A stretch of DNA of 34,470 bases, from positions 1 to 34,470 of the forward strand of contig CATKCE010000055.1 in the NCBI GenBank assembly GCA_949744905.1. Reading direction: 5' to 3'. Shown piece after piece: positions 11,473 through 34,323 of this stretch (position 1 is the first letter of the stretch; each line of letters starts with the position of its first letter). The translations under genes were made by a program, and so were the position numbers. The notes beneath the pieces were generated by a model. That model searched no databases and was not told the origin of the DNA. It saw only the letters and a list, made by a program, of their open reading frames with translations. This DNA is from an uncultured bacterium (lineage in GTDB: Bacteria; Bacillota; Clostridia; Christensenellales; Pumilibacteraceae).

Positions 11473-11510
11473 ACGGGAAACCGAAAAAATTCAAAGAGGC
11501 TAAAGAAACA

Positions 11511-12656: not shown

Positions 12657-13556
12657 ATGAAGGTCTCTTACTTAAACGATGATTTTTTCAGTCGGTTAGA
12701 GACCTTGGCATTGAATCTGCGAACTGATTTATCCGGATTTTTCGGCGGAAAGCATCTTGTAAAAACTTACGGTCAGACGGTGGAATTTGCCGACTACCGC
12801 GAGTATATGCTGGGCGACGATATTCGCCGCATAGACTGGAACTTATACAGCCGTTTCGAAAAATATTTCCTTAAATTGTTTACCGATGAAAGACAGATGC
12901 ACGTCCAGATATTTTTGGACTGTTCGGCGTCTATGGGAAAGGTCAATCCGAACAAAGCCGCGTACGCGATAGGTACGGCGGCTGCTTTGGGCTTTCTGTC
13001 GGTCCACAATATGGACAAAACTTCGTTTAAGCTGATGAAGGGAAACCGCGCGGAGGATCCGTTTGGGACGATAATCGGCAAGAGGTCGTTTTTCCGGGCG
13101 ATAAGCGAATTGGAGGACATGAAGTTTGCCGACGCTACGGATATAGGCGAAGCCGTGACGAGTTGCCCCAATACCGGCACCGGCGACGGACTGACTATAA
13201 TAATATCGGACTTCTTTACCGACAGCGACTGGAAAAAAGCCGTCGATTATCTTTGCTACAAGCGCAGACAAGTGCTTTTGATACAGATAATGTCGCCCGA
13301 AGAAGCGGACCCCGCGTACAACGGCAGAGTCAATCTTATAGACTGCGAATCGGATAACGCGGCCGATACGAGAAACTTAAAGATCAAGATAACACGAGGC
13401 ATGCAACTGGCTTACGAACAAGCTCTTAAAGATATGATAGCGGATATCAAGTCGTTCTGCGATTCGCGCGGAGCGGGCTTTATAACCTTGCAGACAAATA
13501 AAAACATCGAGAAAGCTCTTTTCGGCGAGTTGTTGAAGGTAGGTGTTATGGCATGA
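12657..13556 (+). CDS. DUF58 domain protein with VWA-like MIDAS
   Basis: DUF58 signature FADYREYMLGDDIRRIDWNLYSRFEKYFLKLF and MIDAS-like FLDCSASMG. Starts immediately after the moxR stop codon. Confidence 0.93.
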   Translation: MKVSYLNDDFFSRLETLALNLRTDLSGFFGGKHLVKTYGQTVEFADYREYMLGDDIRRIDWNLYSRFEKYFLKLFTDERQMHVQIFLDCSASMGKVNPNKAAYAIGTAAALGFLSVHNMDKTSFKLMKGNRAEDPFGTIIGKRSFFRAISELEDMKFADATDIGEAVTSCPNTGTGDGLTIIISDFFTDSDWKKAVDYLCYKRRQVLLIQIMSPEEADPAYNGRVNLIDCESDNAADTRNLKIKITRGMQLAYEQALKDMIADIKSFCDSRGAGFITLQTNKNIEKALFGELLKVGVMA

Positions 13557-15457
13557 ATCTTCTTACGCCTCTCGGACTTTTGGGACTTATCTCGATAGCC
13601 GTACTCATACTGATATACATAATAAGACCGAATTACCAGCAAAAAGTGATTTCGAGCACGTACGTATGGCAACTCAGTCTTAAATACAAGAAAAAGCGCT
13701 TACCTATAAACCGTCTGCGCAATATTATCCTTATAATCTGCCAGGTACTTATACTTGCTTCCTGCGCGTTCATTTTGGCGCAGCCTATAATAAACGAGGC
13801 TGTTGAACTTGAGCGGGCGGAAAAGGTCGCTATTTTGGACGCTTCGGCGAGCATGCGCGTAAAGGAAGGCATGGCTTTAAGCGGCGATTCCACCGTAGAG
13901 GACACGAGATTCGAGCGGGCCGTCGAACAAATAAGAGCGCTTGCCGAAGAAGCCGTTAACGACGGCGGGGCTTTCAGCCTGATACTCGCCGACGCAGAGC
14001 CGAAGTTTCTTATACGGCAAGCCGGCAAAGATATGCTTTCCGACATAAACGATACTCTCGACGCTCTTATAAAGGACGACGGAGATTGCTCTTACGGGAC
14101 CGCCGACATAGACGCCGCGGTCATGCTTGCCGAAAACGTGCTCGTTAAAAACGCGGGTGCGCAGGTCGTTTTATACACCGACGCCGATTATACCGACAGC
14201 GGGTACGTCAAGGTGGTAAACGTGGCGAACGAAGGAGAATGGAACGCGGCTATACTTAACGTTACCGCTACCGTCGTTGATAACTACTACACATTTACGG
14301 CGGACGTCGCGTGTTACGGCAAAAACCAGGTGCTCCCCGTTTACTGCGAAGTCAACGGTGTGAACGACTCGGACAAAGTCGTTGAAATGAACGTGATAAA
14401 CACCTGTAACGACGATAAAACCGTCCAGTACGTTTTCGATAAAACTGTGGGCGATGCGATATATTCGTTTGACAGCGCGCAGATATACGTACAGGTGGAC
14501 GACAATTTTTCGGCGGACAACGTTTACAACATTTACGGCGGCACAAAAGAGACGGTAAGAGTCCAGTACGCCAGCTCGTTGCCCAACATATTCTTCGACG
14601 GCATACTTATGGGCTTGCGCGACGATATGAAAAACGAGTGGAATATCGAAGTCGACCAGTTGCAAAAAGGCGAAACGCCGGAGCTCAAAAACCGTGATAT
14701 TTACATCTTCGAACATACGATGCCGGAAAATATCCCCACTGACGGAATAGTGTTTTTGATAGATATGGATAAAGCTCCGCTCAATGCCGGATTTGCGCTT
14801 GGAAGCGAGGTCCAGGGCAGATTCCACTTGGACGAATCGACGGAAGAACATCCCATGACACAGTATCTCAATACAGGGAGTATCGAGATCACCAGGTATA
14901 AACGCATACTTTCTTACGACGGTTACGAGCCGCTCATGTATTGCGGCGGCGATCCCATTCTGCTCGTTAAAAACAAGCCTGATGAAAAAGTGGTCGTGCT
15001 TTCTCTCAACTTAAACTATTCCGATTTTGCATTAAGGCCCGATTTCTCGTTTTTCATGTATAACTTTTTCAATTACTTCTTAACGTCTACCGTCGATAAA
15101 CCCGTTTACGAAGTGGGCGAATCGGTCAAGGTGAATGCGCGCGGCACCGACGTAAAGTTCATGGGACCCGATATCGAGGAAGATTTATCGACGTTCCCCT
15201 GCGAGATACGGCTTAAAAACATCGGCACGTACAGCATCTTGCAAAAACTCATATCCGGTGAACAGGTAAATAAAAATATATTCGTAAAAGTGCCGGCGTC
15301 GGAAAGCAATATCCACAAAAGCGGCGGTTTCATAATCTCGAACCGCGGCGAGAACGATTCCAAGGACTGGTATGACGACCTTTTGGTTTACTTTGCCGCG
15401 GCTTTGGTGGCGTTATCCATAATAGAGTGGATATTGCAAGCCAGAGAGTATTTTTAA
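13553..15457 (+). CDS. BatA-like membrane protein with VWA domain
   Basis: N-terminal LLTPLGLLGLISIAVLILIYIIRPNYQQKVISSTYVW (BatA-type), second TM, MIDAS AILDASASM, C-terminal TM. ATGA overlap with the upstream gene. Confidence 0.85.
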   Translation: MNLLTPLGLLGLISIAVLILIYIIRPNYQQKVISSTYVWQLSLKYKKKRLPINRLRNIILIICQVLILASCAFILAQPIINEAVELERAEKVAILDASASMRVKEGMALSGDSTVEDTRFERAVEQIRALAEEAVNDGGAFSLILADAEPKFLIRQAGKDMLSDINDTLDALIKDDGDCSYGTADIDAAVMLAENVLVKNAGAQVVLYTDADYTDSGYVKVVNVANEGEWNAAILNVTATVVDNYYTFTADVACYGKNQVLPVYCEVNGVNDSDKVVEMNVINTCNDDKTVQYVFDKTVGDAIYSFDSAQIYVQVDDNFSADNVYNIYGGTKETVRVQYASSLPNIFFDGILMGLRDDMKNEWNIEVDQLQKGETPELKNRDIYIFEHTMPENIPTDGIVFLIDMDKAPLNAGFALGSEVQGRFHLDESTEEHPMTQYLNTGSIEITRYKRILSYDGYEPLMYCGGDPILLVKNKPDEKVVVLSLNLNYSDFALRPDFSFFMYNFFNYFLTSTVDKPVYEVGESVKVNARGTDVKFMGPDIEEDLSTFPCEIRLKNIGTYSILQKLISGEQVNKNIFVKVPASESNIHKSGGFIISNRGENDSKDWYDDLLVYFAAALVALSIIEWILQAREYF

Positions 15458-15472
15458 GGGAGGGAAAAGACT

Positions 15473-18199
15473 ATGTCGAATTTCAAAATGAATTTTTCCC
15501 ACCCGTGGCTGTTGTTGTTGCTTATTCCCGCCCTGGTGGTCACGTTTATACCGTATTTCAGACTGGCTAAAAAATACCGTCGCAACCGTAACCGCGTTAC
15601 TTCGGTGGTGTTGCACACCATAATATCGGTGCTTTGCGTGACTGTGCTTGCGGGGCTTACTTTCAGCTATCAGGTGCCCAATACTTCCAACGAAGTATTG
15701 TTGCTTGTGGATATGTCGCACAGTTCGTCTCCAGACGCGAATTTTGAAGAAGAACGCGACAACTTCGTAAAATCCGTGCTCAACGCGAGCAGTTCGCGTT
15801 ATAAACTCGGGATAGTGACCTTTGGGTACGACCAGGTGTATGCGGCGGAACTTTCCAACGATACCGACGAAGTGTACGACAATTACATAAGAGCTAAGCG
15901 TCCCGACGACAGCGCGACCGACATAGCGTCGGCTCTCGGTTACGCCCGCACGCTGTTCAAAACGCCCAAAACGGCTAAAATAGTGCTTGTTACCGACGGC
16001 GCCGAGACCGACGGTTCGGCAAACGATATTGTAATGTCGCTTGCCGCCGAGGGAATAAAAGTGGATACCGTTTATCTCGGACAAAAGCGCGAAGGAAACG
16101 AAGTCCAGCTTTTGGGAGCGGACGCGCCGGATTACAATATACTGGTTGGCGATACTTTCAAGTTGGAACTTACCGTGCAGAGTTCGATTGCATGCGACGC
16201 GGAAATCTCGTTGTACGATAACGGAGAGAAGACGTCGTCGGATATAAAGGCGGAACTTGCGGCGGGTGTGCAGAAAATAGAGATAGAGCACGCGTTTGAA
16301 CTGCCCGGTATGCACGAGTTGCGTTTCGAGATAAACAGCGGATCGGACACTATAGATAAAAACAACAATTACTATTCGTACATTTATTTGCGCGTATACG
16401 ATAAAATGCTTATCGTAGAGCGTACTACAAGCGAGGCGCAGGCTTTCGAGCAGTTGCTTATCGATAACCAGTTCAACGTCGACGTGGTTGCGGCGAGCGA
16501 CGCGGCTGCCATGCCGTCAACGCTGGAAGAACTGAGAGAATACGACCAGGTTATACTCTCCAACATTGCCAATGCGGATATGCCCGAAGGTTTTGACGAA
16601 CTGTTGTATTCTTACGTGCACGATGTAGGCGGAGGATTGCTCACCGTCGGCGGAAACCGCTTAAACGAGCATGGCGAGACTGTGGCGAACGCTTACAACC
16701 GCGCGGATATGATAGGCACTTTGTACCAGCAGATGTTGCCGGTGCAGGCAATAGACTATTCGCCGCCGCTGGGCGTCGTTATAATCATCGACCGTTCGGG
16801 CAGTATGGGCGACGGCAGCGACGGCACCGCGTTGGATCTTGCCAAAAAAGGAGCCATGTCCTGTCTCAACGCTCTTAAAGATTACGATTTTTGCGGTATA
16901 ATGACTTTGGAGACCACGTACAGCGAGGAACTCTCCATTACGCCGATGACCCAGAAAAACAAGATAATAGCCGCTATCGATGACATAAAGATGGGCGGCG
17001 GTACGACTTATACCAACGCTATCGACCGCGCGGGACGCGCTCTTATTGCGCAGACCGGAGTGGAGAGACGCCATATCATCCTGGTTTCCGACGGACAGCC
17101 GGGCGACGACTACGAAAAATACGGCGCCGCCATAAGGCACAATTACGAGACCGGCGGCATTACGTATTCGCTCGTGGTAATAGGCGACAGACCCAGCGCC
17201 GAAGCGGAGCTCAGAAAATCTGCGGAAGAAGACGGGCACGGCAAATATTACTATGCTCCCAAAGGTGACGACTCTATACTCGGCACCATGCGCGAGGATC
17301 TTAAAGTTCCCGATATAACCGAGGTTACCGAGGGCGAATTCACTCCCGAGTTGAGAGGACATTCTTCGGTGGTCAGCGGACTTGACCAGAAAGACATGCC
17401 GAAACTTTACGGATATTACGGCACAAGGCTCAAAGACGGAGCCGAAGCGCCTCTTATGGGCGAATACGTTCCGATTTACGCGCAGTGGAAGTTCGGTAAA
17501 GGTACGGTGGGCAGTTTTATGTGCGATCTGCAAGGCGGCAAATGGTCGGGCGAATTTATGCAAAGCCCCTCCGGCGCAAGATTTTTGCTCAACGCCGTAA
17601 ACGCGCTGTTTCCCACCGGGGACATACGCGACCACGATATAGAGCTGGACCTCTACGAGGACAATTACAGTACCAATATCAGTATTTATACCGATTTGGA
17701 ACAGGGACAGTCGATTAAGGTGGAAGTCACCGAGCCCGAGGGCTTGAACGGCGAACCCGCATCGGTATTTACCATGCAGGCCGGTGCGACGGATAATTAC
17801 AGCCGCATGACCTTTAAGAACAGACGCCCCGGCATACACGAAGTAAAAGTTACCAAACTTGACGCCGACGGAAACAGCATTTCACAGCGCACGACTTACC
17901 GGGCATTTTCGTATTCCAAAGAATACGACATGTTTACCGATACCGAGCAATGCAGGCTGTTTTTATCCGAGCTTGCCGAAAACGGCGACGGTATAACGGT
18001 GGACGTAAACGACCCTTGGCAGATATTCGACGAGACCGTCAAAGCGCTTGACAGGAGTTTCGATCCTCGCTTTGTGTTTATAATTACGGCTCTTGTGCTG
18101 TTCCTGCTGGATGTAGCGGTCCGCAAGTTCAAGTTTAAGTGGATACACGAGATAATACGCGAGCGCAAAGCGGCTAAGGCCGAAGCGCTTGAAAAGTGA
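15473..18199 (+). CDS. Membrane protein with two VWA domains and a GATase1-like domain
   Basis: BatA-like N-terminal TMs. VWA1 EVLLLVDMSHSSS, VWA2 GVVIIIDRSGSMGDG. GATase-like DQVILSNIANADMPEGFDELLYSYVHDVGGGLLTVGG. C-terminal TM. Confidence 0.88.
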   Translation: MSNFKMNFSHPWLLLLLIPALVVTFIPYFRLAKKYRRNRNRVTSVVLHTIISVLCVTVLAGLTFSYQVPNTSNEVLLLVDMSHSSSPDANFEEERDNFVKSVLNASSSRYKLGIVTFGYDQVYAAELSNDTDEVYDNYIRAKRPDDSATDIASALGYARTLFKTPKTAKIVLVTDGAETDGSANDIVMSLAAEGIKVDTVYLGQKREGNEVQLLGADAPDYNILVGDTFKLELTVQSSIACDAEISLYDNGEKTSSDIKAELAAGVQKIEIEHAFELPGMHELRFEINSGSDTIDKNNNYYSYIYLRVYDKMLIVERTTSEAQAFEQLLIDNQFNVDVVAASDAAAMPSTLEELREYDQVILSNIANADMPEGFDELLYSYVHDVGGGLLTVGGNRLNEHGETVANAYNRADMIGTLYQQMLPVQAIDYSPPLGVVIIIDRSGSMGDGSDGTALDLAKKGAMSCLNALKDYDFCGIMTLETTYSEELSITPMTQKNKIIAAIDDIKMGGGTTYTNAIDRAGRALIAQTGVERRHIILVSDGQPGDDYEKYGAAIRHNYETGGITYSLVVIGDRPSAEAELRKSAEEDGHGKYYYAPKGDDSILGTMREDLKVPDITEVTEGEFTPELRGHSSVVSGLDQKDMPKLYGYYGTRLKDGAEAPLMGEYVPIYAQWKFGKGTVGSFMCDLQGGKWSGEFMQSPSGARFLLNAVNALFPTGDIRDHDIELDLYEDNYSTNISIYTDLEQGQSIKVEVTEPEGLNGEPASVFTMQAGATDNYSRMTFKNRRPGIHEVKVTKLDADGNSISQRTTYRAFSYSKEYDMFTDTEQCRLFLSELAENGDGITVDVNDPWQIFDETVKALDRSFDPRFVFIITALVLFLLDVAVRKFKFKWIHEIIRERKAAKAEALEK

Positions 18200-18233
18200 T
18201 CCTTCGGAATATGTTTCCGAAAAGGAGGTAGCA

Positions 18234-21002
18234 GTGAAAAAGTTGCGTTTAATAATACTTGCGTGTTTGCTTGCGGCATCGTCGCTGGTATTGTTTGCCT
18301 GCGGTTCGTCCGTGGCGCGTCCCGGCGGATTGCGTATAGACGGCGATACGTACGTATTGACGTGGAGCAGAGTGCGCGACGTAAACCGTTATATCGTATC
18401 TATAAACGGCGAAGAAGTGCGTTGCAAGGATAACAGATATTCGTTGGAGCGTCTTAAACCCGGCACATACGATATCAAAGTGAAGGCCGTGGATCAAAAC
18501 AACGACGAGTCCGAGTGGTCGAAGTCCTGCGAGTTTGTCAGACCTGTAGAATCGGGAATGACGTATAAACTTATAAACAACAAGACCGAGTACGAACTGA
18601 GCGGCGTCGGCATTGCTACCGGCGATATCGTCGTGGACGATACGTACAGAGGAAAGCCGGTAACCAAAATAGGATCAAAAGCGTTTTACCGAAACAACAA
18701 GATAAGCAGCGTCGTAATAGGCAAAAACGTTAAAGAAATAGGAGATTACGCTTTTTACAGCTGTATCTCGCTTAAAAGCGTCGCTTTTTCCGACAGCGTT
18801 GAAAAAATCGGCGAATACGCTTTCCAGAGTTGCGCCCAACTTACCGAGCTTACCATACCCGATAAAGTTGTGCAAATAATGCCGTATACGTTTTCTTATT
18901 GCCGCGGATTGGAGACGGTGGACTTGGGCAGCGGCGTAAACGTCATAGGCGAGTATGCTTTTTCCGACTGCACCGCGCTTAAAGAAATAGTCCTTCCCGA
19001 CGGGGTAACGTCAATCGGCAAAAACGCTTTTTATTGTTGCGAGTCCGTTGAACGGATAACCGGCGGAAACGGACTTAAGACCATAGGAGAAACGGCGTTT
19101 TCGCACTGCGACAGTCTTACCGAACTCAGATTGGGAGACAACATGGAGCTAGTGGGCGCGGGAGCGTTTGCCGATTGCAAAAGCCTTAAAAGCGTTACGA
19201 TATCGGAGAGCGTTACAAGCATAGGGTCGGCCGCTTTTGAAAAATGCGGCGAACTTAACGAAATAACCATAGGCGGAAACGTGACGCATATAGGTACCGA
19301 CGCGTTTAACAAGACCGGCGTATGGAACGCCGCGCCCGTCGGTATAGTGTATATAGATAATTGGGCTGTAGATTACAAGTACGCGACGGAGGAAGACGAT
19401 TCGACGTCGAACGGCGCGATCGTGATAGCTCCGGGAACGATAGGTATAGCTATGGGCGCGTTTTACGCTATGCCCGACCTTCTTACCGTGTCTATACCCG
19501 ACAGCGTATCAATAGTGGACGACCAGGCGTTTTACGGTTGCGAAGAATTGATCGCCGTGGGGATCGGCAACGGCGTAAAAAGTATAGGCAGTTATGCTTT
19601 CGCCCGTTGCAAATTGCTTGAAAAAATAGTCTTCGGCAGTTCGTCCGCTCTCAAAACCATAGGAAATAACGCGTTTTATCAAAGCGAGCGTCTCAGCGTT
19701 ATAGGATTTCAGGATACTCCTGCGGGACAAACGGCGTTACCCGCTACTTTAGAGAGCATCGGTACAAACGCTTTTGTCGACACCGCTATATGGAAAAGCG
19801 CCGACGACATAGTGTACGTCGGCAATTGGGCGGTGGGAGCCAACAACAGCTACATCGTAATGGGCAATATAAAGGAAGGTACCGTAGGTATAGCCAATTA
19901 CGCGTTTTATAAAAGCCAGTATCTTATGGCGGTGTCCGTGCCGTCAAGCGTGAGGCATGTAGGGCGCGCGGCGTTTTACGGTTGCGTGAATCTGTCCATA
20001 GCAAGGATTGAAGCTCCGCTCGAGATAATAGACGAATATGTGTTTTACGAATGCCAGTCGCTCGCATCCTTTACTATTCCCGAAACTGTAAAAACGATAG
20101 GGCGTTCGGCGTTTTATAACTGCAAATCGTTGCAATCGGTGACAGTGCCCGACAGCGTGGATACTATAAACAAATACGCGTTTTACGGATGCGTTTCGTT
20201 GGCCGAATTGAATATCGGAAGCGGATTAAAGGAGATCGGCGACTATGCGTTCCAAAACTGCGCGCTTTTGGAGTCGTTGACTATTCCGGACAATGTGGCG
20301 AAGATTGGCTTAAAGGCGTTTTACAATTGCGCCGAACTCAAAACGGTCGTCATAGGCAACGGGTTGGAAAGTATCTCGAACAATACTTTCGACAAGTGCG
20401 GTAATTTGGCTTTGGCGTATATCGGCGACGGCGTTAAAAACATCGGCGACTATGCTTTCCGCAATTGTAAAAATCTGCTTGTGACGATACTCGGCAAAAA
20501 CGTGGAGAGCATAGGTAAATACGCGTTTTACGGTTGCAAGAGTCTTGTCGGCATTGTATTGCCGGACAGTCTTAAAAGCATAGGCAATTTCGCTTTCCGC
20601 AATTGCGAAACGCTTGTTTCGGTAACGCTGGGCGCGGGCATAGAATCGATAGGCGACCACGCGTTTTACGGTTGCAAGCTGTTGACGTTTTATACCGAAA
20701 GCGCAAAGACTCCGGACGGTTGGAGCTCGAGATACAATTCTTCGTACCGTCCCGTGATATCGGGATGCACGTTGTCGCAGGACAAGAGTTACGTCGTGTC
20801 GTTTGTAAAGACTAAGGACAGCGTGTACAAATTGAGAGACAGCGACTTGATCACTATGCCTTACCGTTTGGGATACGTATTTGCGGGGTGGGCGAAGTCG
20901 CCGGATAAAACTTCTCCGGACTACGGCTTTGCCGATGTGGAAAAAGTTCCAAACGGAACTACGCTGTACGCCGTATGGCAAGTAGCGGAAATAGAAGAAT
21001 AA
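18234..21002 (+). CDS. BspA-like LRR lipoprotein with N-terminal Fn3-like and C-terminal InlB-B-like modules
   Basis: GTG start at 18234 preceded by AAAGGAGG (18221-18228). Signal MKKLRLIILACLLAASSLVLFAC (lipobox). LRR_5 repeats. C-terminal MPYRLGYVFAGWAKSP...TLYAVWQ. The ORF track start at 18189 is a TTG inside the previous gene. Confidence 0.92.
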   Translation: MKKLRLIILACLLAASSLVLFACGSSVARPGGLRIDGDTYVLTWSRVRDVNRYIVSINGEEVRCKDNRYSLERLKPGTYDIKVKAVDQNNDESEWSKSCEFVRPVESGMTYKLINNKTEYELSGVGIATGDIVVDDTYRGKPVTKIGSKAFYRNNKISSVVIGKNVKEIGDYAFYSCISLKSVAFSDSVEKIGEYAFQSCAQLTELTIPDKVVQIMPYTFSYCRGLETVDLGSGVNVIGEYAFSDCTALKEIVLPDGVTSIGKNAFYCCESVERITGGNGLKTIGETAFSHCDSLTELRLGDNMELVGAGAFADCKSLKSVTISESVTSIGSAAFEKCGELNEITIGGNVTHIGTDAFNKTGVWNAAPVGIVYIDNWAVDYKYATEEDDSTSNGAIVIAPGTIGIAMGAFYAMPDLLTVSIPDSVSIVDDQAFYGCEELIAVGIGNGVKSIGSYAFARCKLLEKIVFGSSSALKTIGNNAFYQSERLSVIGFQDTPAGQTALPATLESIGTNAFVDTAIWKSADDIVYVGNWAVGANNSYIVMGNIKEGTVGIANYAFYKSQYLMAVSVPSSVRHVGRAAFYGCVNLSIARIEAPLEIIDEYVFYECQSLASFTIPETVKTIGRSAFYNCKSLQSVTVPDSVDTINKYAFYGCVSLAELNIGSGLKEIGDYAFQNCALLESLTIPDNVAKIGLKAFYNCAELKTVVIGNGLESISNNTFDKCGNLALAYIGDGVKNIGDYAFRNCKNLLVTILGKNVESIGKYAFYGCKSLVGIVLPDSLKSIGNFAFRNCETLVSVTLGAGIESIGDHAFYGCKLLTFYTESAKTPDGWSSRYNSSYRPVISGCTLSQDKSYVVSFVKTKDSVYKLRDSDLITMPYRLGYVFAGWAKSPDKTSPDYGFADVEKVPNGTTLYAVWQVAEIEE

Positions 21003-21035: not shown

Positions 21036-24000
21036 ATGAAAAAGTTTTCCAAAATTGCTGTAATCGTGCTTATGCTGGTAGCGGTGGTTTGCGCCGTTGC
21101 CGCATGCCGTTCGGTTGACGGGATATCCGTGGACGGGACGGATGCGCCGCGCACAACATACGTGCAGGGGCAGGATCTCGATCTGTCTAAGGGCAAGATC
21201 CTCGTAAAGACCAACAACGGAACCGAGGAGGTCGCGCTCAACGCGAAAGGAGTTTCGGTCACCGGTTATGACAAATCAAAACTGGGCGATCAGGAACTTA
21301 CCGTAAAATACGAGGGTAAGACCGCGTCGTTTTCGGTAAAAGTCATTGCGCGCATTGCCCTTGACCGTAACTGCGTGACCGAGTATTTTGTCGGTGAATA
21401 TTTTGACAAAAGCAAGGGACGCATCATAGTTGCAAACGACGACGGAACTACCAAATCCGTTGATATGAGCAGCGACGGCGTCGAGATTACCGGCTTCGAT
21501 TCGAGCGCGCCTGGCAACGGACGCGCGGCGACGGTAAGTTACGGCGGCTACACCGATACGTTTAACGTAAACGTATATGCGATAGAGAGTTCTAAACTTA
21601 CCGCGCCCCGTAAAAAGGAATATAAAAGCCATGAGACCGATATCGATCTTACCGGCGGATTTATAATGCTTAAAAGCGGCGATGTTACCAAAAACGTTAC
21701 CATCACGCGCGATATGATAAGCGGATTCGCGCCCGACGCCGCCGATGAAAACAATTCGACGACGCCGCTTTCCCAAAAGATATCGGTAGCGTACGCGGGC
21801 TTTAAAGGCTCTTTTAATATAAACGTTATATATACCGACGTGTCGCGCATACATAAAATAGCGCTCTCTCTTGCGGATATCGATTGGTCGGGAGAGACTT
21901 ATCCCGCTATTGCGGACGATAAGGGAGAGGCTGCTATATCAGCCGCCGAGATGTATCTCGGGCTCGGCTCCGCCGAAAGAGCTTACATTTCCGACGAAGA
22001 TAAAAACGCTGTGATAAAAACCGCCGTCGTTTACGGACGAAAGATATGGCGCGAGGATGCCGCAGGCTATTCCGACGCCTTTACGGTAAACGAACAGGGC
22101 GAAGTTACGTTTGTGTGCAATACGTTGTCCGACGCGGTGGCCGGAGCCGACAAGCTTGGAAGCAGTCCGTGCACGCTTATAACGAACAGCGAATTGTTGA
22201 CGGATATCGCGTCTGAATTCGGCGATATCGTACTTGTGGGAGAAGAAAAGATATCGGCGTATCTCGATTCGGTGTGCACGCCCTCCGAACTTACCGTCGT
22301 GCTCGCTTCGCTCGATTATATGTCGGAGCTTGATTCGAAAGTTTCCGACGGTAATATAACCGATTGGACCAAAGAAAATTACGCGACTTATGCCGACGAG
22401 ATAGCGGCCTTGCTCGCGGTCATCGACGGCGGAGACTTTAAATCGTCGCGCGACCGCGCAATTTACGAGATAGTCTTCACAAAGTGGAGAAACGGCGACT
22501 TTATAGCGATATTCGACGCAATGTACGCATACTGCTATCACGGCGAACATCTGTCCGACGCGGGTGCGATACTCAATATTTATCTTCCCGCAAAGGTGCA
22601 GGCATTGTACAATTATACTCTGCTGTCTTATATGGAAGTGCTCAAATCGGCTACGGCGTCGGGACGCGCCGCTTACGAGACGACGCTCTTTATGCTTTAT
22701 TACGATAATGCGACAAAGGCGTTGGAGGATGTTTCTGCAAACGGCGACGACGTCGACAAGTGGCTTAGCGTGATATTGTCTATAAACGTTTCGTCGAGCC
22801 AGTCGCCCGTGTCTCTTTTGAACGTGCTGGCGCTTTGCCGCACTTCGCAATACGGATATATTTACCACCACAATGCGTGGTTCGAGGACGCCGAATTTAC
22901 CGGTCTTTGGACGCAGTATCTTGAAGTGTGCAGAGATTACGCGCAGTACATATCGGATAACAAAGAAAACGATAACGCTCCGGCATATTGGACGGTAGAG
23001 GAAAACGGCAATAAAATAAAAGCCATGTTCGAGACTTTCGTCAACATGTCGTCGCCGCGCCAAATGGGATTTTTGCGGTCGCTGAATGTCAGCTACATGA
23101 ACAGGCTCCCTGCGTACGCGTTGTACTACGGCGAAACGGTTTACAGCGAATTCGTATATCTCGTGGCGAATTATTACGAAGACGCGCTGCCCGAAAAATC
23201 GTTGCCGGTATTCCGCAATTTGTTGCTTGCGATAGAAAGCTACTCGCGGACGTTTGCTTTGTCCGACGCAGGCAAGTCGTTTACCGATCAAATGGACGCG
23301 GCGTCGAAAGCGTACGCAGAATTGGATCCGGCGGACAAAACCGGTTTTGACGCGCTCCTTAAAACGGTATACGACAAGTATGCCGCATTGCCCGAAAAGA
23401 TACAGGCGGCGGCGTCTTACGAGCTCGGCGACAATAAAGCCAAGTTCGACGCGCTTAAGGAAGCGATAACCAATATCAATCTTGCCGCCGTAAATATCGC
23501 TAATAAGCGTCCGGTGTACAATATGCTGTTCGCGGCGTACGAGCAAGCCGAATCGCTTGTAAAAGAGATATTGGAAAGCGGAAACGAAGATCTTATAAAC
23601 GCTTATTACAATCTCGGGTATTACGACTACACAACGCAGAGCGGAACGGTGAAATGGTCGCTTGAATACGCTATGTACAATATGCGGGGGATATATGTTA
23701 CATATCTTACCAACACCGCTCTTACTCAGAATTCCGGTCTCATGTGGTATACTTATAAAGACAACGGTATGGGCGCGTTTTACGAAAAGGCCGCGCACGT
23801 TATGTGGACGTATAACAACAATCTCGGCACCGGTGAAAAGAAAGAGTACGACAAAGCCGCGGTGCTTGCCTCAATGGCGGCATTCCGCGATCTTACCGAT
23901 ATGGGCAAGGTAGCCGTAAACATTCTTTCGCAAAACTCCAATTATTATTACAACGGTCTGGATGCGTACTTTAAGAGCGTGTTGTTGCCGGATAAAGAGG

Positions 24001-24332
24001 GCGAACTTGATCCGGAAGATTATGCGGTATACGAAGTCGCTTCGCGTCTTATGGCCGCCGAACGCTTGTACGTGGCTTATCTGCCGTATAAAATGGCGGA
24101 AGGCAACGAAAACAATCCCGACGGATTCGAGGCCGAAGCCGCCGAGGCTAAAAAAGAGTTTACCGACGCTATGGACGACGTAGAACGCCTTTACGGCGCG
24201 TTGTCGAGCGAAGAACAGGCTTTGTTCGACAGCTACTTAAAGGACGCATACGACCACTATAAAGCCGTAAGCGACGGACTTAAAGCGGCGACGGGCGGAG
24301 CCGCCGCAGTTGCGGAGACCGCCGCCGCGTAA
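21036..24332 (+). CDS. Lipoprotein with about three bacterial Ig-like (Big_3-type) repeats and a long uncharacterised C-terminal region
   Basis: Signal and lipobox VVCAVAAC. Repeats TTYVQGQDLDLSKGKILVKTNNGTEEVAL..., EYFVGEYFDKSKGRIIVANDDGTTKSVDM..., EYKSHETDIDLTGGFIMLKSGDVTKNVTI.... The rest has no motif I recognise. Confidence 0.85.
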   Translation: MKKFSKIAVIVLMLVAVVCAVAACRSVDGISVDGTDAPRTTYVQGQDLDLSKGKILVKTNNGTEEVALNAKGVSVTGYDKSKLGDQELTVKYEGKTASFSVKVIARIALDRNCVTEYFVGEYFDKSKGRIIVANDDGTTKSVDMSSDGVEITGFDSSAPGNGRAATVSYGGYTDTFNVNVYAIESSKLTAPRKKEYKSHETDIDLTGGFIMLKSGDVTKNVTITRDMISGFAPDAADENNSTTPLSQKISVAYAGFKGSFNINVIYTDVSRIHKIALSLADIDWSGETYPAIADDKGEAAISAAEMYLGLGSAERAYISDEDKNAVIKTAVVYGRKIWREDAAGYSDAFTVNEQGEVTFVCNTLSDAVAGADKLGSSPCTLITNSELLTDIASEFGDIVLVGEEKISAYLDSVCTPSELTVVLASLDYMSELDSKVSDGNITDWTKENYATYADEIAALLAVIDGGDFKSSRDRAIYEIVFTKWRNGDFIAIFDAMYAYCYHGEHLSDAGAILNIYLPAKVQALYNYTLLSYMEVLKSATASGRAAYETTLFMLYYDNATKALEDVSANGDDVDKWLSVILSINVSSSQSPVSLLNVLALCRTSQYGYIYHHNAWFEDAEFTGLWTQYLEVCRDYAQYISDNKENDNAPAYWTVEENGNKIKAMFETFVNMSSPRQMGFLRSLNVSYMNRLPAYALYYGETVYSEFVYLVANYYEDALPEKSLPVFRNLLLAIESYSRTFALSDAGKSFTDQMDAASKAYAELDPADKTGFDALLKTVYDKYAALPEKIQAAASYELGDNKAKFDALKEAITNINLAAVNIANKRPVYNMLFAAYEQAESLVKEILESGNEDLINAYYNLGYYDYTTQSGTVKWSLEYAMYNMRGIYVTYLTNTALTQNSGLMWYTYKDNGMGAFYEKAAHVMWTYNNNLGTGEKKEYDKAAVLASMAAFRDLTDMGKVAVNILSQNSNYYYNGLDAYFKSVLLPDKEGELDPEDYAVYEVASRLMAAERLYVAYLPYKMAEGNENNPDGFEAEAAEAKKEFTDAMDDVERLYGALSSEEQALFDSYLKDAYDHYKAVSDGLKAATGGAAAVAETAAA

Positions 24333-24348: not shown

Positions 24349-24371
24349 ACCCTAAAAAGGAGTACATTACC

Positions 24372-27300
24372 TTGAAAAAGTTTTTTGTAGCAATGTTATC
24401 GGCGCTTATGACGGTGTCCATGGTATTCGTGGCTGTTGCGGACAGCCGCCGCGTTTCGGTTCCCGTTGCCGCGCCGAATATGTCTAAGCAGATAGAGGAC
24501 GTGACCGGTAAATTCGATTTCGATTCGGCGCTCGACTCGGCGCTCCGCGACGACGGTTACGGCGACTATGCGATAAATACCAAAGGTCCCCGTAGCGTTA
24601 TAGTGGAACTTAGCGGAGCCAGCGTTTTGGAAACGTTTAATTCTTTACAGCAATCCGGCGGTTACGATTCGGCGGCGGAATTCGCTTTATCGAGCGCAGG
24701 TAAAAGCATATCGAGCGAACTGAAAAGCGAGCAAAAGGCTTTTCTTGCCGCGCTTAAACGCGAAAAAATAGATTATACGCTCAAATACAATTATTCTGGT
24801 ATAATAAACGCGGTCGCGCTTACGGTGGATTCGTCGGATGTCTCAGCCATATCCAAAATAAAGGGAGTGGAAAACGTCATTTACTCCGAGACGTATTACG
24901 CGCCTTCAGCGGAAGCCGTGATGAATCAGGTCAACGCTTACAGCACGGGTATTTACAACACCGACGGCATTTCGTATACCGGCGCTGGCATGGTGGTGGC
25001 CGTTCTCGATACCGGTCTCGATTACACCCATAACGCGTTCCGTCAAATGCCCGAGGTGCAGTCCCTTACCAAAGACAAAGTGGAGGCCGCGGTCAAAAGC
25101 GGTACTCTTGCAGCAAAAGCAATGATGGAGTCGGTGACTGCCGACGAGTTGTACATGAACGCCAAAGTGCCGTTCCAGTTCGACTATGCCGACAACGACG
25201 CCGACGTGTATCCCGTAACTTCTTCGCACGGTACCCACGTTGCCGGTATTATAGCCGGATACGAGGAAAACGTGGATTACGAGATCATGAGTTCCGACGA
25301 AAACATGTATTTCGATACCGACGAAAACGGCAATAAGAGATTTTCCGGCGTTGCGGTGGACGCGCAGCTTGCCATTTTTAAAGTGTTCTCCGACCTCGGT
25401 GAACAGGGCGCTCCCACCGAGGCTATAATAGCGGCGCTCAACGACGCGGTAGTACTGGGCGTCGACATAATAAACATGAGCCTCGGAAGCGATGCGGGCT
25501 TTGCACGTTCTACCGACGAGGAAGCCGTAAACGAGGTGTACGATCGCATACGCGAGGCGGGCATCACTCTTGCGGTAGCCGCAGGCAACAGTTACAGTTC
25601 GTCTTACGGCGGAACATACGGAAACACAAACCTTACTTCAAACCCCGACAGCAGTACCGTGGGTTCGCCGTCCGTGTATAACGGCACCATTTCCGTAGCG
25701 TCTATAAGCGGACAGCTTTCGCCGTATCTTTTGATAAACGGCAAGGTCGCCGCGTACTTTATAAACGGCAAAGCGGCGTCCGGCAAGGATTACGATTTTA
25801 CCGAGTTGTTGCTTGACGGAGCGGAGAAAAAGACCTTTGATTACGTGGTCGTGGGCGGTTACGGCGAAGCGCACAACTATACGCAGGACGTGCGCGAAAA
25901 ACTCGCGAAAGGCAACTGCATAGCCGTTGTCCGCCGCGGTACGTCGAGCTTCGAGGACAAACAGCGCGTGGCGGCGCAGTACGGCGCGGTCGGTTGTATA
26001 ATTTACAACAACGTGTCCGGCACGATAAGCGCGTCTTTGGGCACCGGATACAGAATACCCACGTGTACCGTTACTATGGATATCGCCAATCAGTTCGTGT
26101 CGCAGACTTACGGCACGATAGAGTTGTGTAAAGATTACAAAGCAGGTCCGTTTATGAGCGAGTTCTCGTCGTGGGGAGCATCTCCCGATTTGCAGTTGTA
26201 TCCCGATATCACGGCGCACGGCGGATATATTACTTCGGCTGTGCTGGGCGGCTACGGCGTGTACAGCGGCACCAGTATGGCTACGCCCAATATCGCCGGT
26301 ATCAGCACGCTTTTCCGTCAGCATCTCGTTGAAAAGTATCCCGACCTCAGCAAAGTACAGATAAACGACATGTTGTACCAGATATTGATGTCGACGGCTA
26401 CCATGGCGCGCAACGAAGACGGCAATCCGTATTCGCCCCGTAAACAGGGCGCGGGACTTGCCGATATCAACAATTCTATAAACACCGACGCGTATATGTA
26501 CGTTAAAGGCACTAACAAGACCAAGGTGGAGTTGGGCGACGATCCGTCGAAGTCCGGCAATTATACCTTGCGTTTCAACTTTAAGAATACTTCTTCGTCC
26601 GAGCGCAAGTACGAAATGTCGAGTTACGTCATGACCGAAAAAGTGTCCAGCGACGGCATAACCGTGGCCGAAAAAGCGTACGTGTTCTCCGACGCAAAGG
26701 TGCGTATCGCCGCGGCGGAAAACGGTATCTCGTATTCGGGCAATACGGTTACGCTCGCGCCCGGCGCGGACGCTCAACTTACCGTGCAGATAGTGTTGAC
26801 GTCTTCCGATAAAGCGTATCTCGACGCAAACTTCAAAAACGGAATGTTCGTTGAGGGATATCTTAGATTTACCGATATGAGCGCCGCCAACAAAGTAGAC
26901 CTCGGCATACCGTATATGGGATTTTACGGCGATTGGTTGGACGCTCCCATGTTCGATCATTCGGCGTACGACGTTTCGGGTTCTAAGTTCGACGAAAGCG
27001 TGCCCCAAGAGGACAAACTTAAAGCCGACCTTTATGAGTCCATAGTTATAGGCAAGTACTACCGCGAGAACGGCGACCGCTACATGCCGCTCGGCGAATA
27101 TATCTTCAATTTGCCCGAGAATCGGGAAACCCAAATAGAATCTTCCGTAGATAAAATAGCCGTAAGTAACAACGATTACGGTATTTACGAGTTATACGGC
27201 GTGTATGCAGGACTTTTACGCGGCGCCAAGAGCATGAAAGTCGCCGTCTCCGATTCTGTGACCGGCGAGGTGATATACGAGCGCACCAACTACGAAGTCC

Positions 27301-30300
27301 GCAAGAGCGTCGAAGGCAAGCCCGGTCCGGTCTTGATAGAACTGGATCCCGACGAATTGGGTCTTAAAAGCAATACCAAGTACGACGTCAAACTCACCGG
27401 CGCAATAGATTACGAAAACGGCGAAAACGTGAGCCGCAACAGCTGGGATTTCAGTTTTTATACCGATTACGAAGTTCCGTACGTTGTAGATTCCAACGTG
27501 CGCGTATCGTACGACAACAATAAAAACAAGACGGTGAATCTCGATCTGTATCTGTACGATAACCATTACGTCCAGTCGTTGCAGCTTTTCACCTGGGTGG
27601 GAAAAGCCAACGATCCCGACATTGAGTTCCTTACCGAGTATCCGATAGAGGTCAACAGCAGTTTCGGCGGCACCACGCGCGTTACCGTAGATATCACGGA
27701 ATATCTCGACAACTTTGTCAACGCCGTCGGAAGTTATGCCAATAATATAGGCGTATATATAAGCGATTACGCGCTCAATCAGGGCGGGTACAGGATCCCC
27801 ATCAATTGGTCGGAACTTACCGATCTTTCGTTGACCGATACCGACGGTTTGGAACTTAACTCTTACGAGGACGGAGTCGAAGTGGGGCTCGGCATGCCGT
27901 TCGACTTTAACGTAAAAGTCGGTCCCGATAAAGCCGATTGGCAGGCGCTTAATTACACGTTGAGCGATCCTTCGGTGGCGGAGATTAAAGACGGCGTCAT
28001 CTTCGGCAGAAAAGTCGGCGAGACCGCCGTTACCGTGACGTCAAAGCACGAGGACAGTCTCGGAGGCGACGCGGAAAAAACGATAGGAAAGTACACGTTT
28101 ACCGTTAAGGTAACGGACGACGGACAGACGCACGAGTATCCGCTCAGGTCGGTCAAGTTTGCGTCGTATCAGCGCGCCGGAGAAACCGAACGCGTTATCA
28201 CGGATAATCGGGTTTCGCTGGATTGCGGAACCGTGGCCAAACTGCGGCTCGACTATACTCCGTGGTATGCGACCAACACCGACCAGATAACATGGACGTC
28301 GGTAACTCAGCGTACCGTAAGCGTTACCGCGGACGGCGTTATTACCGCGCTCAACGAGGGCGTGGGCTACGTGCGCGTAAGCTGGAAGTACAACAACGTA
28401 AACTTCGAAAGCATGCTTACCGTGAACATCGGTAAAAAATACGAACTTTTAAGCGGATATATTTACCGTTACCACGGCGCAGACAAAGTGTTGCAGATAC
28501 CTTCCAATTTGGGCGGTATATACCTCGGACATTTCAATGACGACACAGCCGGACCGCTGAGTGGCGATAAAAACGTAAAAGTCGCTATCGTGCCGAGCGG
28601 TATCAAAAATATCGGCAGAGAGACGTTTGCCGGCTGTACCGCTTTAGAAACGGTATATCTGCCCGCTACGCTTGAAGGCATCGGATACGGCGCGTTCAAA
28701 GACTGTAAAAAACTTAAAAATATTTACTGGTTTACCGACGCTTACTACAATACCGATCTCGGTTATTACACTTATGTAAACGCCGGCGGAGCTACTGTGC
28801 CGTGCTTTGACGAAAACGGCAATTACATGGGAGGCTTTACCGGCAAAAACGGCGTTGCCGAAAGCGCGGAAGACCTTACCGAATGCACGGCGAAAAATCT
28901 GTATTTGTGGAACAGCGCGTTTGAAAGCTGTTCGGCGCTTACGGCGTTCGATCTCTCGAAAACTACCGCCGTGTACGAAAACGCGTTCAAAGACTGCACT
29001 TCGCTCAAAAAAGCGGATGCGCGCAATATAAAGAACGCAGGCGAAAGCGCGTTTGCCGGATGCTCGGGAATAACCGAACTGTTGCTCGGAAAAGATACCG
29101 TGCTCGGCGTCGCCATGTTCCAGAACTGTAACTCCATTACTTCGGTGGATATATATTCCTCCGCGATCGGGGCGGGCGCGTTCTTTAACTGCAAAGGACT
29201 GCGTACCGTAAATATCCATAACGACCTTATACGCATCGGCGAGCAGGCGTTTGCCGGTTGTACCGCGTTGACGGCATTGAACGTTGCCGGTAGCGTCGGC
29301 GAGATAGAGTACCACGCTTTTTACGGCGCAGCGCTGTCGTCTGCGGATATTTCCGTAGCGAATATCGGCGCGAGAGTATTCGAAGGCTGCACGAGACTGA
29401 CGTCGGTTACGTTGCGCGACACTGCGTTTTTGGGCGACTACGCGTTCCTCGGTTGTTCGGCGCTCCGTACCGTTACCATCGGCGAAGGCACTACGCTCGA
29501 TACCATAGGTTTGTCGCCGTTTAACGGCTGCACTTCGTTTACCGACTTTGCGGTATCGCGCAACAACCGCAATTTCCGTATCAAGCGGGATAACGGATAT
29601 ACTCTTTTATATAATGCCGACGCGACTAAACTGTTGCTTGCGCCCACCGGATATGCTCCTTCCGCCGGCTATAACTTCAACGGTTTGACTACGATAGGAT
29701 CCAGCGCGTACGCCAACAGCGGCATAAGCGTGGATACGCTTGTTATCCCCGAGGGGATAACGGAAATAGGCGACTTTGCGTTCGGATTCAATAGATTCTC
29801 CACGGTCATATTGCCCGCATCGCTTGAGACCATAGGCGTCGGCGCGTTTTACGGTTGCGCTAATCTTAAAAGCGTGGTGTTCCTCGGAGACAAGGTAAAA
29901 ACGTTGCCGTCGAGTTTGTTCTACGGTTGCACGTCGCTTGTATCCGTCGATCTGCCGCGCGGACTGGAAACCATAAACGCGGGCGCGTTTTACGGTTGCT
30001 CGGCTTTGGGCGTTATAAATATCCCCGCGTCGGTCGGGGCTATCGGAAACAATGCGTTTGCCGGTTGTACGTCGCTTAAAACCGTTAAATTCGACAACGC
30101 GTCGCGTCTCGCGACCATAGGCTCCGGTTGCTTTATGTCCGCGGGTATTACCGGTATTCAACTGCCCGCTACTTTGAAAACGCTCGGCGACGGCGCGTTT
30201 GCCGGCTGTTCCGCGCTTACCGAGATAACCATCCCCGGTGCGCTTGAAAACTGGGGCTCGCTCACGTTCCTGCAATGTACTTCGCTTAAAAACGTTGTAA

Positions 30301-31712
30301 TAGAGGAAGGAGTGAAATACGTCGGCTCTTACGCTTTTGCTTTTGTCGATACGGAAAGCGGAGATATATATTACAATACTGCCCTTAAAACGGTGGTGTT
30401 GCCTTCCACTCTCACGGATATACGCCCTTACGCCTTTGCCGCCTGCAGCGCTCTCGAAAGCATAGATCTCAAATATGTGCAAGTCGTATACGATTCGGCG
30501 TTTATGGGATGCACCGCGCTTAAAGACCTCGGAAACACCGATAAAGTGTTCTATCTTGGAGCACAGGCGTTTACCGGTTGCTCGGCGCTCGTGTCGGTGG
30601 ATATGCCGGGCGTGCTTACGATAGGCAATTACGCGTTCCAAAACTGTGCTTCGCTTACTTCGGTCAATTTCCCCTCGGCGCAGATTGTGGCTAACTTTGC
30701 TTTCAGAAACTGTGCCGAACTTGCAAACGTGAATATGCCGGAAGTGCGCAGGATGTTCAGCATGGTATTCTACAATTGCGCCGCGCTTACCGAAATAGAG
30801 TTGCCCAAAATAGAAATGATGGGGCAGGGCGTGTTCTTCGGTTGCGGTCTTACTTCCTTTAATATTCCCGCGTCGCTCACCGATATGGACGTTGCGAACT
30901 TTATGGCTTGTCTTTCGCTTGAAGAAATAACGGTTGACGAGAACAATCCCGTGTACTTTACCGACGGCGTTGCGGTATACAGAAAACTTTCAAACGGACA
31001 TTACGAGGCCGTAGCTTATCCCAATGCGCGCGGCGGCAAGTATTCTATTTTGGAAGGGACCGTGCGCATAGCCGATTACGCCTTTGCTTATTCGGTCACG
31101 CTCAATTACGTGGAGCTTCCCGGGACTATAAAGAGCGTGGGCGCGCAAGCGTTCTACTACGTCGGACTCGGTACGGACAGCATAACTTACGTGTTCAAGA
31201 GTTTGCAGGCGCCCGCTTTGGAGTGTTTCGCCTCTTCGGAGGGCAGAAACGCCGTGTATCTGTATTACAACTTTACCCACGGATTCGGACGCGTCAGGAC
31301 GAACATCAAATATCCCGCCAACGGTTTGGGATACAACAGCTATATTTATCAGACGTATTTTAATCTTGACGAGACTTTGCCCGCCGTTGCCGACGAAACG
31401 ACTTTGTTGGTGATAGACCGAATTAACAATCTCGACAAAGCCACCGCTACCGCGGAGGAAGTGGCAAGCATACGTTCGCTTATAAACACCATGAGCGAGA
31501 CGCAGAAAAATCTTGTCACCAATTACGGCAAGTTTGTGGATATCGAGTCTTCGATAAACGCCCATCCCGAGCCTACGCCGGGACCCGAGGTCGAAAAGGG
31601 ATTTCCGCTGTACGGAGCCGTGCTCATTTCTGTATTTGCGACTTTGGCCGTATGTTGCGCCGCTTTCGTACTGTACGTGTGGTTTATGAAAAAGAGAGGT
31701 AACGCACAATGA
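24372..31712 (+). CDS. Cell-surface subtilisin-like (S8) protease fused to a BspA-type LRR domain, C-terminal TM anchor
   Basis: TTG start with AAAGGAG upstream. Catalytic motifs VAVLDTGLDYTH (Asp codon 25008), SSHGTHVAGIIAG, AVAAGNS, YSGTSMATPNIAG (Ser codon 26274). PA-like segment VVRRGTSSFEDKQRVAAQYGAVGCIIYNN. Big_2-like domain before the LRRs. C-terminal PLYGAVLISVFATLAVCCAAFVLYVWFMKKR. Confidence 0.95.
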   Translation: MKKFFVAMLSALMTVSMVFVAVADSRRVSVPVAAPNMSKQIEDVTGKFDFDSALDSALRDDGYGDYAINTKGPRSVIVELSGASVLETFNSLQQSGGYDSAAEFALSSAGKSISSELKSEQKAFLAALKREKIDYTLKYNYSGIINAVALTVDSSDVSAISKIKGVENVIYSETYYAPSAEAVMNQVNAYSTGIYNTDGISYTGAGMVVAVLDTGLDYTHNAFRQMPEVQSLTKDKVEAAVKSGTLAAKAMMESVTADELYMNAKVPFQFDYADNDADVYPVTSSHGTHVAGIIAGYEENVDYEIMSSDENMYFDTDENGNKRFSGVAVDAQLAIFKVFSDLGEQGAPTEAIIAALNDAVVLGVDIINMSLGSDAGFARSTDEEAVNEVYDRIREAGITLAVAAGNSYSSSYGGTYGNTNLTSNPDSSTVGSPSVYNGTISVASISGQLSPYLLINGKVAAYFINGKAASGKDYDFTELLLDGAEKKTFDYVVVGGYGEAHNYTQDVREKLAKGNCIAVVRRGTSSFEDKQRVAAQYGAVGCIIYNNVSGTISASLGTGYRIPTCTVTMDIANQFVSQTYGTIELCKDYKAGPFMSEFSSWGASPDLQLYPDITAHGGYITSAVLGGYGVYSGTSMATPNIAGISTLFRQHLVEKYPDLSKVQINDMLYQILMSTATMARNEDGNPYSPRKQGAGLADINNSINTDAYMYVKGTNKTKVELGDDPSKSGNYTLRFNFKNTSSSERKYEMSSYVMTEKVSSDGITVAEKAYVFSDAKVRIAAAENGISYSGNTVTLAPGADAQLTVQIVLTSSDKAYLDANFKNGMFVEGYLRFTDMSAANKVDLGIPYMGFYGDWLDAPMFDHSAYDVSGSKFDESVPQEDKLKADLYESIVIGKYYRENGDRYMPLGEYIFNLPENRETQIESSVDKIAVSNNDYGIYELYGVYAGLLRGAKSMKVAVSDSVTGEVIYERTNYEVRKSVEGKPGPVLIELDPDELGLKSNTKYDVKLTGAIDYENGENVSRNSWDFSFYTDYEVPYVVDSNVRVSYDNNKNKTVNLDLYLYDNHYVQSLQLFTWVGKANDPDIEFLTEYPIEVNSSFGGTTRVTVDITEYLDNFVNAVGSYANNIGVYISDYALNQGGYRIPINWSELTDLSLTDTDGLELNSYEDGVEVGLGMPFDFNVKVGPDKADWQALNYTLSDPSVAEIKDGVIFGRKVGETAVTVTSKHEDSLGGDAEKTIGKYTFTVKVTDDGQTHEYPLRSVKFASYQRAGETERVITDNRVSLDCGTVAKLRLDYTPWYATNTDQITWTSVTQRTVSVTADGVITALNEGVGYVRVSWKYNNVNFESMLTVNIGKKYELLSGYIYRYHGADKVLQIPSNLGGIYLGHFNDDTAGPLSGDKNVKVAIVPSGIKNIGRETFAGCTALETVYLPATLEGIGYGAFKDCKKLKNIYWFTDAYYNTDLGYYTYVNAGGATVPCFDENGNYMGGFTGKNGVAESAEDLTECTAKNLYLWNSAFESCSALTAFDLSKTTAVYENAFKDCTSLKKADARNIKNAGESAFAGCSGITELLLGKDTVLGVAMFQNCNSITSVDIYSSAIGAGAFFNCKGLRTVNIHNDLIRIGEQAFAGCTALTALNVAGSVGEIEYHAFYGAALSSADISVANIGARVFEGCTRLTSVTLRDTAFLGDYAFLGCSALRTVTIGEGTTLDTIGLSPFNGCTSFTDFAVSRNNRNFRIKRDNGYTLLYNADATKLLLAPTGYAPSAGYNFNGLTTIGSSAYANSGISVDTLVIPEGITEIGDFAFGFNRFSTVILPASLETIGVGAFYGCANLKSVVFLGDKVKTLPSSLFYGCTSLVSVDLPRGLETINAGAFYGCSALGVINIPASVGAIGNNAFAGCTSLKTVKFDNASRLATIGSGCFMSAGITGIQLPATLKTLGDGAFAGCSALTEITIPGALENWGSLTFLQCTSLKNVVIEEGVKYVGSYAFAFVDTESGDIYYNTALKTVVLPSTLTDIRPYAFAACSALESIDLKYVQVVYDSAFMGCTALKDLGNTDKVFYLGAQAFTGCSALVSVDMPGVLTIGNYAFQNCASLTSVNFPSAQIVANFAFRNCAELANVNMPEVRRMFSMVFYNCAALTEIELPKIEMMGQGVFFGCGLTSFNIPASLTDMDVANFMACLSLEEITVDENNPVYFTDGVAVYRKLSNGHYEAVAYPNARGGKYSILEGTVRIADYAFAYSVTLNYVELPGTIKSVGAQAFYYVGLGTDSITYVFKSLQAPALECFASSEGRNAVYLYYNFTHGFGRVRTNIKYPANGLGYNSYIYQTYFNLDETLPAVADETTLLVIDRINNLDKATATAEEVASIRSLINTMSETQKNLVTNYGKFVDIESSINAHPEPTPGPEVEKGFPLYGAVLISVFATLAVCCAAFVLYVWFMKKRGNAQ

Positions 31713-34293: not shown

Positions 34294-34323
34294 TTGACTT
34301 ATATTATCGGTTTTTGTTATAAT
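34294..34323 (+). promoter_or_regulatory. SigmaA-type promoter for a gene beyond the window
   Basis: TTGACT at 34294-34299, 18-bp spacer, TATAAT at 34318-34323. Confidence 0.65.

What the first reader, a model, noticed from the sequence alone, without database searches (positions are those of the whole stretch)
24372..31712. Subtilisin-like protease fused to a BspA-type LRR array in the same operon as LRR lipoproteins
Intact Asp/His/Asn/Ser motifs, a propeptide-like N-terminus, a PA-like insert and a C-terminal TM indicate an active surface protease. The LRR half resembles its neighbours. It could process the neighbouring LRR lipoproteins or use the LRRs to select host or dietary targets.
Basis: partly seen in the sequence, partly recalled or inferred. 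Interest (0 to 1): 0.6.

Follow-up and report, generated by a model that had tools for sequence, protein, structure and literature searches.

The report
LRR-armed surface protease feeding peptide importer
An uncultured Clostridia bacterium makes a large membrane-anchored protease with a built-in array of protein-binding repeats, and across its order the gene almost always sits beside a peptide importer, so it most likely cuts outside proteins into peptides the cell can eat rather than trimming its neighbours.

Summary
ORF 24372-31712 (2446 aa, TTG start) encodes a signal peptide, propeptide, S8 subtilase with PA insert, Fn3-like domains, an ~880-residue BspA-type LRR_5 array, and a C-terminal TM helix. 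It is the only S8 gene found in the genome. Fold comparison puts residues 181-1160 with the C5a peptidase/SpyCEP type of cell-envelope proteinase. The fusion is not a local oddity. Orthologues of mostly 2400-2800 aa, nearly always single-copy, occur in at least 8 families of the order. All 39 full-length ones aligned keep D, H, N and S, and they form essentially one clade; relatives outside the order that were checked carry other C-terminal modules. LRR lipoproteins abut the protease in a minority of loci and the MoxR cluster in 2-3. The constant neighbour is an oligopeptide ABC importer (OppABCDF): 31 of 41 family genomes, and 18 of 20 loci in seven other families (the other two run off their contigs). 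Protease-positive genomes also more often lack histidine biosynthesis. Best reading: a peptide-harvesting protease working like lactococcal PrtP-Opp, but TM-anchored and LRR-equipped. In the window's own species, Opp lies on another contig.

The parts
24357..24362 (+). ribosome-binding site AAGGAG for the TTG start
   Evidence: sequence read
24372..31712 (+). S8-LRR protease gene, 2446 aa
24372..24440 (+). signal peptide (aa ~1-23), no lipobox
   Evidence: sequence
24705..24899 (+). propeptide, Inhibitor_I9-like (aa 112-176)
   Evidence: Pfam 21.4 bits, cut-off 21.2
24981..26456 (+). Peptidase_S8 catalytic domain (aa 204-695); D213 codon 25008, H286 25227, N406 25587, S635 26274
   Evidence: residues invariant in 39 orthologues
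25869..26081 (+). PA domain inserted between oxyanion Asn and catalytic Ser (aa 500-570)
26562..26918 (+). fn3_5 domain typical of cell-envelope proteinases (aa 731-849)
28197..28376 (+). Big_2-like domain (aa 1276-1335)
28572..31232 (+). BspA-type LRR_5 array (aa ~1401-2287)
31602..31688 (+). C-terminal transmembrane helix, then KKRGNAQ; no LPXTG
   Evidence: no sortase found in the genome
31709..34282 (+). LRR_5 / InlB-repeat lipoprotein, start overlaps protease stop by 4 nt
21036..24332 (+). Big_3 lipoprotein upstream of the protease (no LRR)
18189..21002 (+). LRR_5 lipoprotein
10429..18199 (+). membrane protein + MoxR + DUF58 + BatA/VWA + VWA/GATase1-like genes; a separate conserved unit, next to the protease in only a few relatives

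Best explanation
The gene encodes a cell-envelope proteinase of the S8-PA-Fn3 type that is exported, presumably self-matured by removing its propeptide, and tethered to the membrane by a C-terminal TM helix. It cuts proteins outside the cell into oligopeptides, which the OppABCDF importer takes up. The LRR array, in the stalk between the catalytic head and the membrane, most likely captures or positions substrate proteins or attaches the enzyme to a target surface. Shown by computation: domains, intact active-site residues, CEP-like fold, single copy in this genome, conservation across the order, repeated linkage to Opp, and association with loss of histidine biosynthesis. Inferred: proteolytic activity, maturation, peptide handover to Opp, and the role of the LRRs.
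For: Opp genes lie within 20 kb of the protease gene in 31 of 41 family genomes (a rough chance estimate is ~2.5% per genome, ignoring shared ancestry). In seven other families of the order, 18 of 20 sampled loci show Opp; the other two end at contig edges. Opp lies on the same strand, usually downstream, upstream in a few. Co-occurrence with SBP_bac_5 across 74 genomes: 41 both, 2 protease only, 8 SBP only, 23 neither. Protease-positive genomes lack HisD more often: 34/43 vs 8/31; 19/28 vs 2/16 among genomes at least 90% complete. AlphaFold model of aa 181-1160 (pLDDT 82) aligns along nearly its whole length with C5a peptidase and SpyCEP, E down to 1.3e-57. D/H/N/S invariant in 39 orthologues; catalytic-domain dN/dS 0.06-0.20 in five pairs. 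The LRR is more diverged than the catalytic domain in all ten pairs compared, while array length stays nearly constant. Model system: L. lactis PrtP supplying OppA (PMC7783315).
Against: In the window's own species Opp is on another contig (C97) and the window ends 188 nt after the next gene; in the closest relative (G051) the two are also on different contigs. Genomes are related, so counts are not independent and the p-values overstate strength. The window organism itself has HisD and a dihydroxy-acid dehydratase, so it is not auxotrophic by these two markers, and the latter shows no clear link with the protease. LRR divergence is still purifying (dN/dS 0.18-0.29), not diversifying, and stalk regions sometimes diverge as much. 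No biochemical data.
Confidence: 0.66

Rival explanations
1. The protease matures or sheds the neighbouring LRR lipoproteins.
For: Co-directional, 4-nt overlap with one LRR lipoprotein and 39 nt from another lipoprotein. Non-OppA lipoproteins commonly lie next to the protease, and an LRR one abuts it in about 9 loci.
Against: The protease is conserved at many loci without an LRR neighbour, while Opp is the constant neighbour. No shared cleavage site was sought in the neighbours.
Confidence: 0.1
2. A host-directed enzyme like C5a peptidase or SpyCEP, cutting one or a few host proteins chosen by the LRRs.
For: Best structural matches are C5a peptidase and SpyCEP. LRR arrays can bind proteins and here diverge faster than the catalytic domain.
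Against: Single-copy presence in many genera and families and linkage to Opp fit a metabolic role better. Nearly all solved CEP structures are streptococcal host-directed enzymes, so the structural match does not tell nutritional from host-directed members apart.
Confidence: 0.14
3. The LRR array is only a spacer or general adhesin; the enzyme is an ordinary nutritional protease (a sub-case of the best explanation that differs only in the LRR role).
For: Out-of-order relatives have other stalk modules in this position: SLH, Big_2, InlB-like repeats, beta-propeller-like hits. LRR identity to the window is only ~30% at the median.
Against: LRR_5 is kept across families with similar array length, more than a freely exchangeable spacer would need.
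Confidence: 0.3

Closest known systems
Lactococcal cell-envelope proteinase PrtP (lactocepin) with the Opp importer
   Same: S8 domain with PA insert and Fn3-like domains; exported and surface-bound; presumed partner is an oligopeptide ABC importer
   Different: Here an LRR array occupies the stalk, the anchor is a TM helix instead of sortase-linked LPXTG, and the gene lies beside opp in most relatives
Streptococcal C5a peptidase (ScpA/ScpB) and SpyCEP
   Same: Closest solved structures by sequence and fold
   Different: No LRR array; sortase-anchored; cleave particular host proteins (from general knowledge)
BspA-type LRR_5 surface proteins (PDB 4fs7, 4gt6, 4h09; HupY/LrrG)
   Same: Same LRR_5 repeat type
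   Different: These are binding proteins without a protease (from general knowledge)
S8-PA-Fn3 proteases of Lachnospiraceae and Oscillospiraceae (L036, L039, L041, L068)
   Same: About 33-36% identity over aa 181-1160, PA insert, mostly with fn3_5
   Different: Other C-terminal modules (SLH/FMN_bind, Big_2, InlB-like repeats); no LRR_5

Membership tests
Cell-envelope proteinase fold group (S8-PA-Fn3) | Subtilase domain with Asp, His, oxyanion Asn, Ser | tested here: met
Cell-envelope proteinase fold group (S8-PA-Fn3) | PA domain inserted before the catalytic Ser | tested here: met
   PA aa 500-570 between N406 and S635
Cell-envelope proteinase fold group (S8-PA-Fn3) | Fn3-like domains after the catalytic domain, overall C5a-peptidase-like fold | tested here: met
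   fn3_5; Foldseek alignment of 1046 columns with ScpB, TM 0.61/0.63
Cell-envelope proteinase fold group (S8-PA-Fn3) | Signal peptide and propeptide | tested here: met
   Hydrophobic N-terminus; I9 only just at its cut-off
LPXTG-anchored lactocepin / SGO_0316-type peptidase | C-terminal LPXTG and sortase anchoring | tested here: not met
   No LPXTG; no sortase family hit in the genome
LPXTG-anchored lactocepin / SGO_0316-type peptidase | NCBIfam NF040553 score above its cut-off | tested here: not met
   262 bits against 1400
Nutritional protease-Opp system | Partner oligopeptide importer | tested here: met
   Linked in most relatives; present but on another contig in the window's genome
Nutritional protease-Opp system | Protease releases peptides that Opp imports | not testable with these tools
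   Needs biochemistry or genetics
BspA-type LRR_5 | LRR_5 repeats above curated cut-off | tested here: met
   467 bits, 7 stretches

The most novel reading that the evidence does not exclude
An order-wide nutrient-capture machine in which an LRR array built into the protease chooses which proteins (for example mucosal, dietary or competitor surface proteins) are cut, with the peptides passed to a dedicated long OppA (~880 aa), giving each species its own protein diet.
Probability: 0.3. Interest if true: 0.68.

Novelty: new variant of a known kind. Interest (0 to 1): 0.5.

Why it matters
It suggests the proteinase-Opp arrangement known from dairy bacteria exists here in a sortase-independent form with a built-in recognition module. 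If the LRRs set substrate choice, sequence differences between species could point to what proteins each one feeds on.

Tried and rejected
Neighbour processing as the general function: LRR lipoproteins adjoin only a minority of loci. MoxR-cluster partnership: the VWA gene lies elsewhere in most relatives that have it. LRR half as a recent copy from neighbouring genes: the best-scoring relatives of the window's LRR array are mostly LRRs of orthologous proteases, though one neighbour (841-10299) scores in the same range. Sortase anchoring: no sortase found and no LPXTG. Branched-chain auxotrophy as a correlate: dihydroxy-acid dehydratase shows no clear link. The simple promoter/terminator scan gave no more sites than shuffled sequence. 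Literature searches found no description of an S8-LRR_5 fusion; only open-licence papers were searched. One Pfam call failed for a frame error and was redone with corrected coordinates.

Full report
The ORF 24372-31712 is intact and 2446 aa long. Pfam finds S8 subtilase, PA, fn3_5, Big_2 and a strong LRR_5 array; the propeptide match sits just at its cut-off. D213, H286, N406 and S635 are present, and the Ser codon is at 26274 as stated. The C-terminus is a TM helix followed by KKRGNAQ. There is no LPXTG, and no sortase was found in the genome (the assembly is ~92% complete). It is the only S8 gene found there. The neighbours are as described, except that 21036-24332 is a Big_3 lipoprotein without LRRs.

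Type of protein. By sequence the best solved relatives are C5a peptidase and SpyCEP. A model of aa 181-1160 from 26 aligned sequences (mean pLDDT 82) matches these structures along nearly its whole length (TM 0.61/0.63 with ScpB, rmsd 13.8, so domain positions differ). So the N-terminal half belongs to the cell-envelope proteinase fold group. It fails the LPXTG-anchored subfamily test (262 bits against a cut-off of 1400). The LRR half was modelled from only five sequences (mean pLDDT 76, pTM 0.58) and shows repeated short strands as expected of LRR solenoids.

Recurrence. In the family, 43 of 74 genomes have a homologue, mostly in frames of 2400-2800 aa. In the order, 80 of 297 sampled genomes do, including shorter, more distant S8 proteins. 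Thirty-nine full-length S8-LRR proteins were aligned, and all keep the four active-site residues; median identity to the window is 55% in the catalytic domain and 30% in the LRRs. In a tree of 81 S8 domains the LRR-bearing ones group together with three label changes. Two 'no-LRR' rows inside the group are a gene split by an in-frame stop (G022) and a contig end (G271). One LRR row, G070, sits on a long branch outside the two main LRR groups, so a single origin is likely but not strictly shown. Two more S8-LRR proteins of ~2145 aa occur in another family of the order (G281, G130). In a class sample no out-of-order genome matched at the strength of a full-length orthologue (best 1.9e-105, against about 1e-150 or better for most orthologues whose match is unbroken), and five of these checked had no LRR match. 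Named relatives in Lachnospiraceae and Oscillospiraceae carry other modules.

Neighbourhood. Reading the loci of 21 relatives in the family showed OppABCDF genes beside the protease in most. Using SBP_bac_5 positions, 31 of 41 family genomes have it on the same contig within 20 kb, typically ~10 kb. Of the ten others, several have the protease near a contig end; in G051 and G065 the genes are not close on the contigs held. In seven other families, 18 of 20 loci show Opp and two run off the contig. Named loci L033-L035 show it too. In the window's species the Opp operon lies on contig C97; C55 ends 188 nt after gene 31709-34282, and C97 has a cyclophilin-like gene before the operon. The closest relative has Opp on a different contig, so separation is likelier than an assembly gap, though a join is not excluded. 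The MoxR/BatA/VWA cluster adjoins the protease in G061 and G234, and a weaker VWA homologue is near in G087; both G061 and G234 show MoxR-type cluster genes, protease and Opp in one row.

Co-occurrence. Protease and SBP_bac_5 co-occur (41/2/8/23; Fisher 2e-10) and protease-positive genomes more often lack HisD (34/43 against 8/31; 19/28 against 2/16 at 90% completeness or more; Fisher 6e-6 and 5e-4). These counts ignore shared ancestry: one genus of 14 genomes lacks the protease and nearly all have HisD. The window organism has HisD and DHAD, so it is not auxotrophic by these markers.

LRR half. In all ten pairs of orthologues compared, the LRRs are more diverged than the catalytic domain (for example 74% vs 93% in G050/G053), with nearly constant array length. 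dN/dS is higher in the LRRs in all five pairs tested (0.23 vs 0.06 in G050/G053) but below 0.3, and synonymous sites are near saturation in several pairs. This is consistent with changing binding targets or with relaxed constraint; it does not separate them.

Mechanism. The best-supported reading is a peptide-harvesting surface protease feeding Opp, as PrtP does in L. lactis (PMC7783315). Activity, maturation, peptide handover and LRR target choice are inferred. Neighbour processing remains possible in this species, but does not explain the conserved context.

Noticed in passing
841-10299: 3152-aa lipoprotein with 22 LRR_5 stretches and InlB-like repeats, one of several LRR_5 proteins in this small genome.
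   Followed up: no
G000:C97:4192-6819 and relatives: OppA is ~875 aa here and 860-1100 aa in relatives, longer than usual OppA proteins as I know them; possible extra domain.
   Followed up: no
G022:C9 and G057:C7 S8-LRR homologues: Each carries one in-frame TAG inside the S8 match; broken gene, assembly error or recoding not examined.
   Followed up: no
34294-34323: Strong promoter-like site (11 of 12, TG before the second hexamer) between the last gene and the contig end.
   Followed up: no
10429-18199: MoxR/DUF58/BatA/VWA cluster is a separate conserved unit; 29 of 47 genomes searched have a homologue of its VWA gene.
   Followed up: partly
most S8-LRR loci, between protease and OppA: A lipoprotein (often related to G005 26231) usually lies between the two; its role is unknown.
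   Followed up: no
2-631: Cut-off ORF rich in Lys/Ala/Thr repeats at the contig start, no Pfam hit.
   Followed up: no
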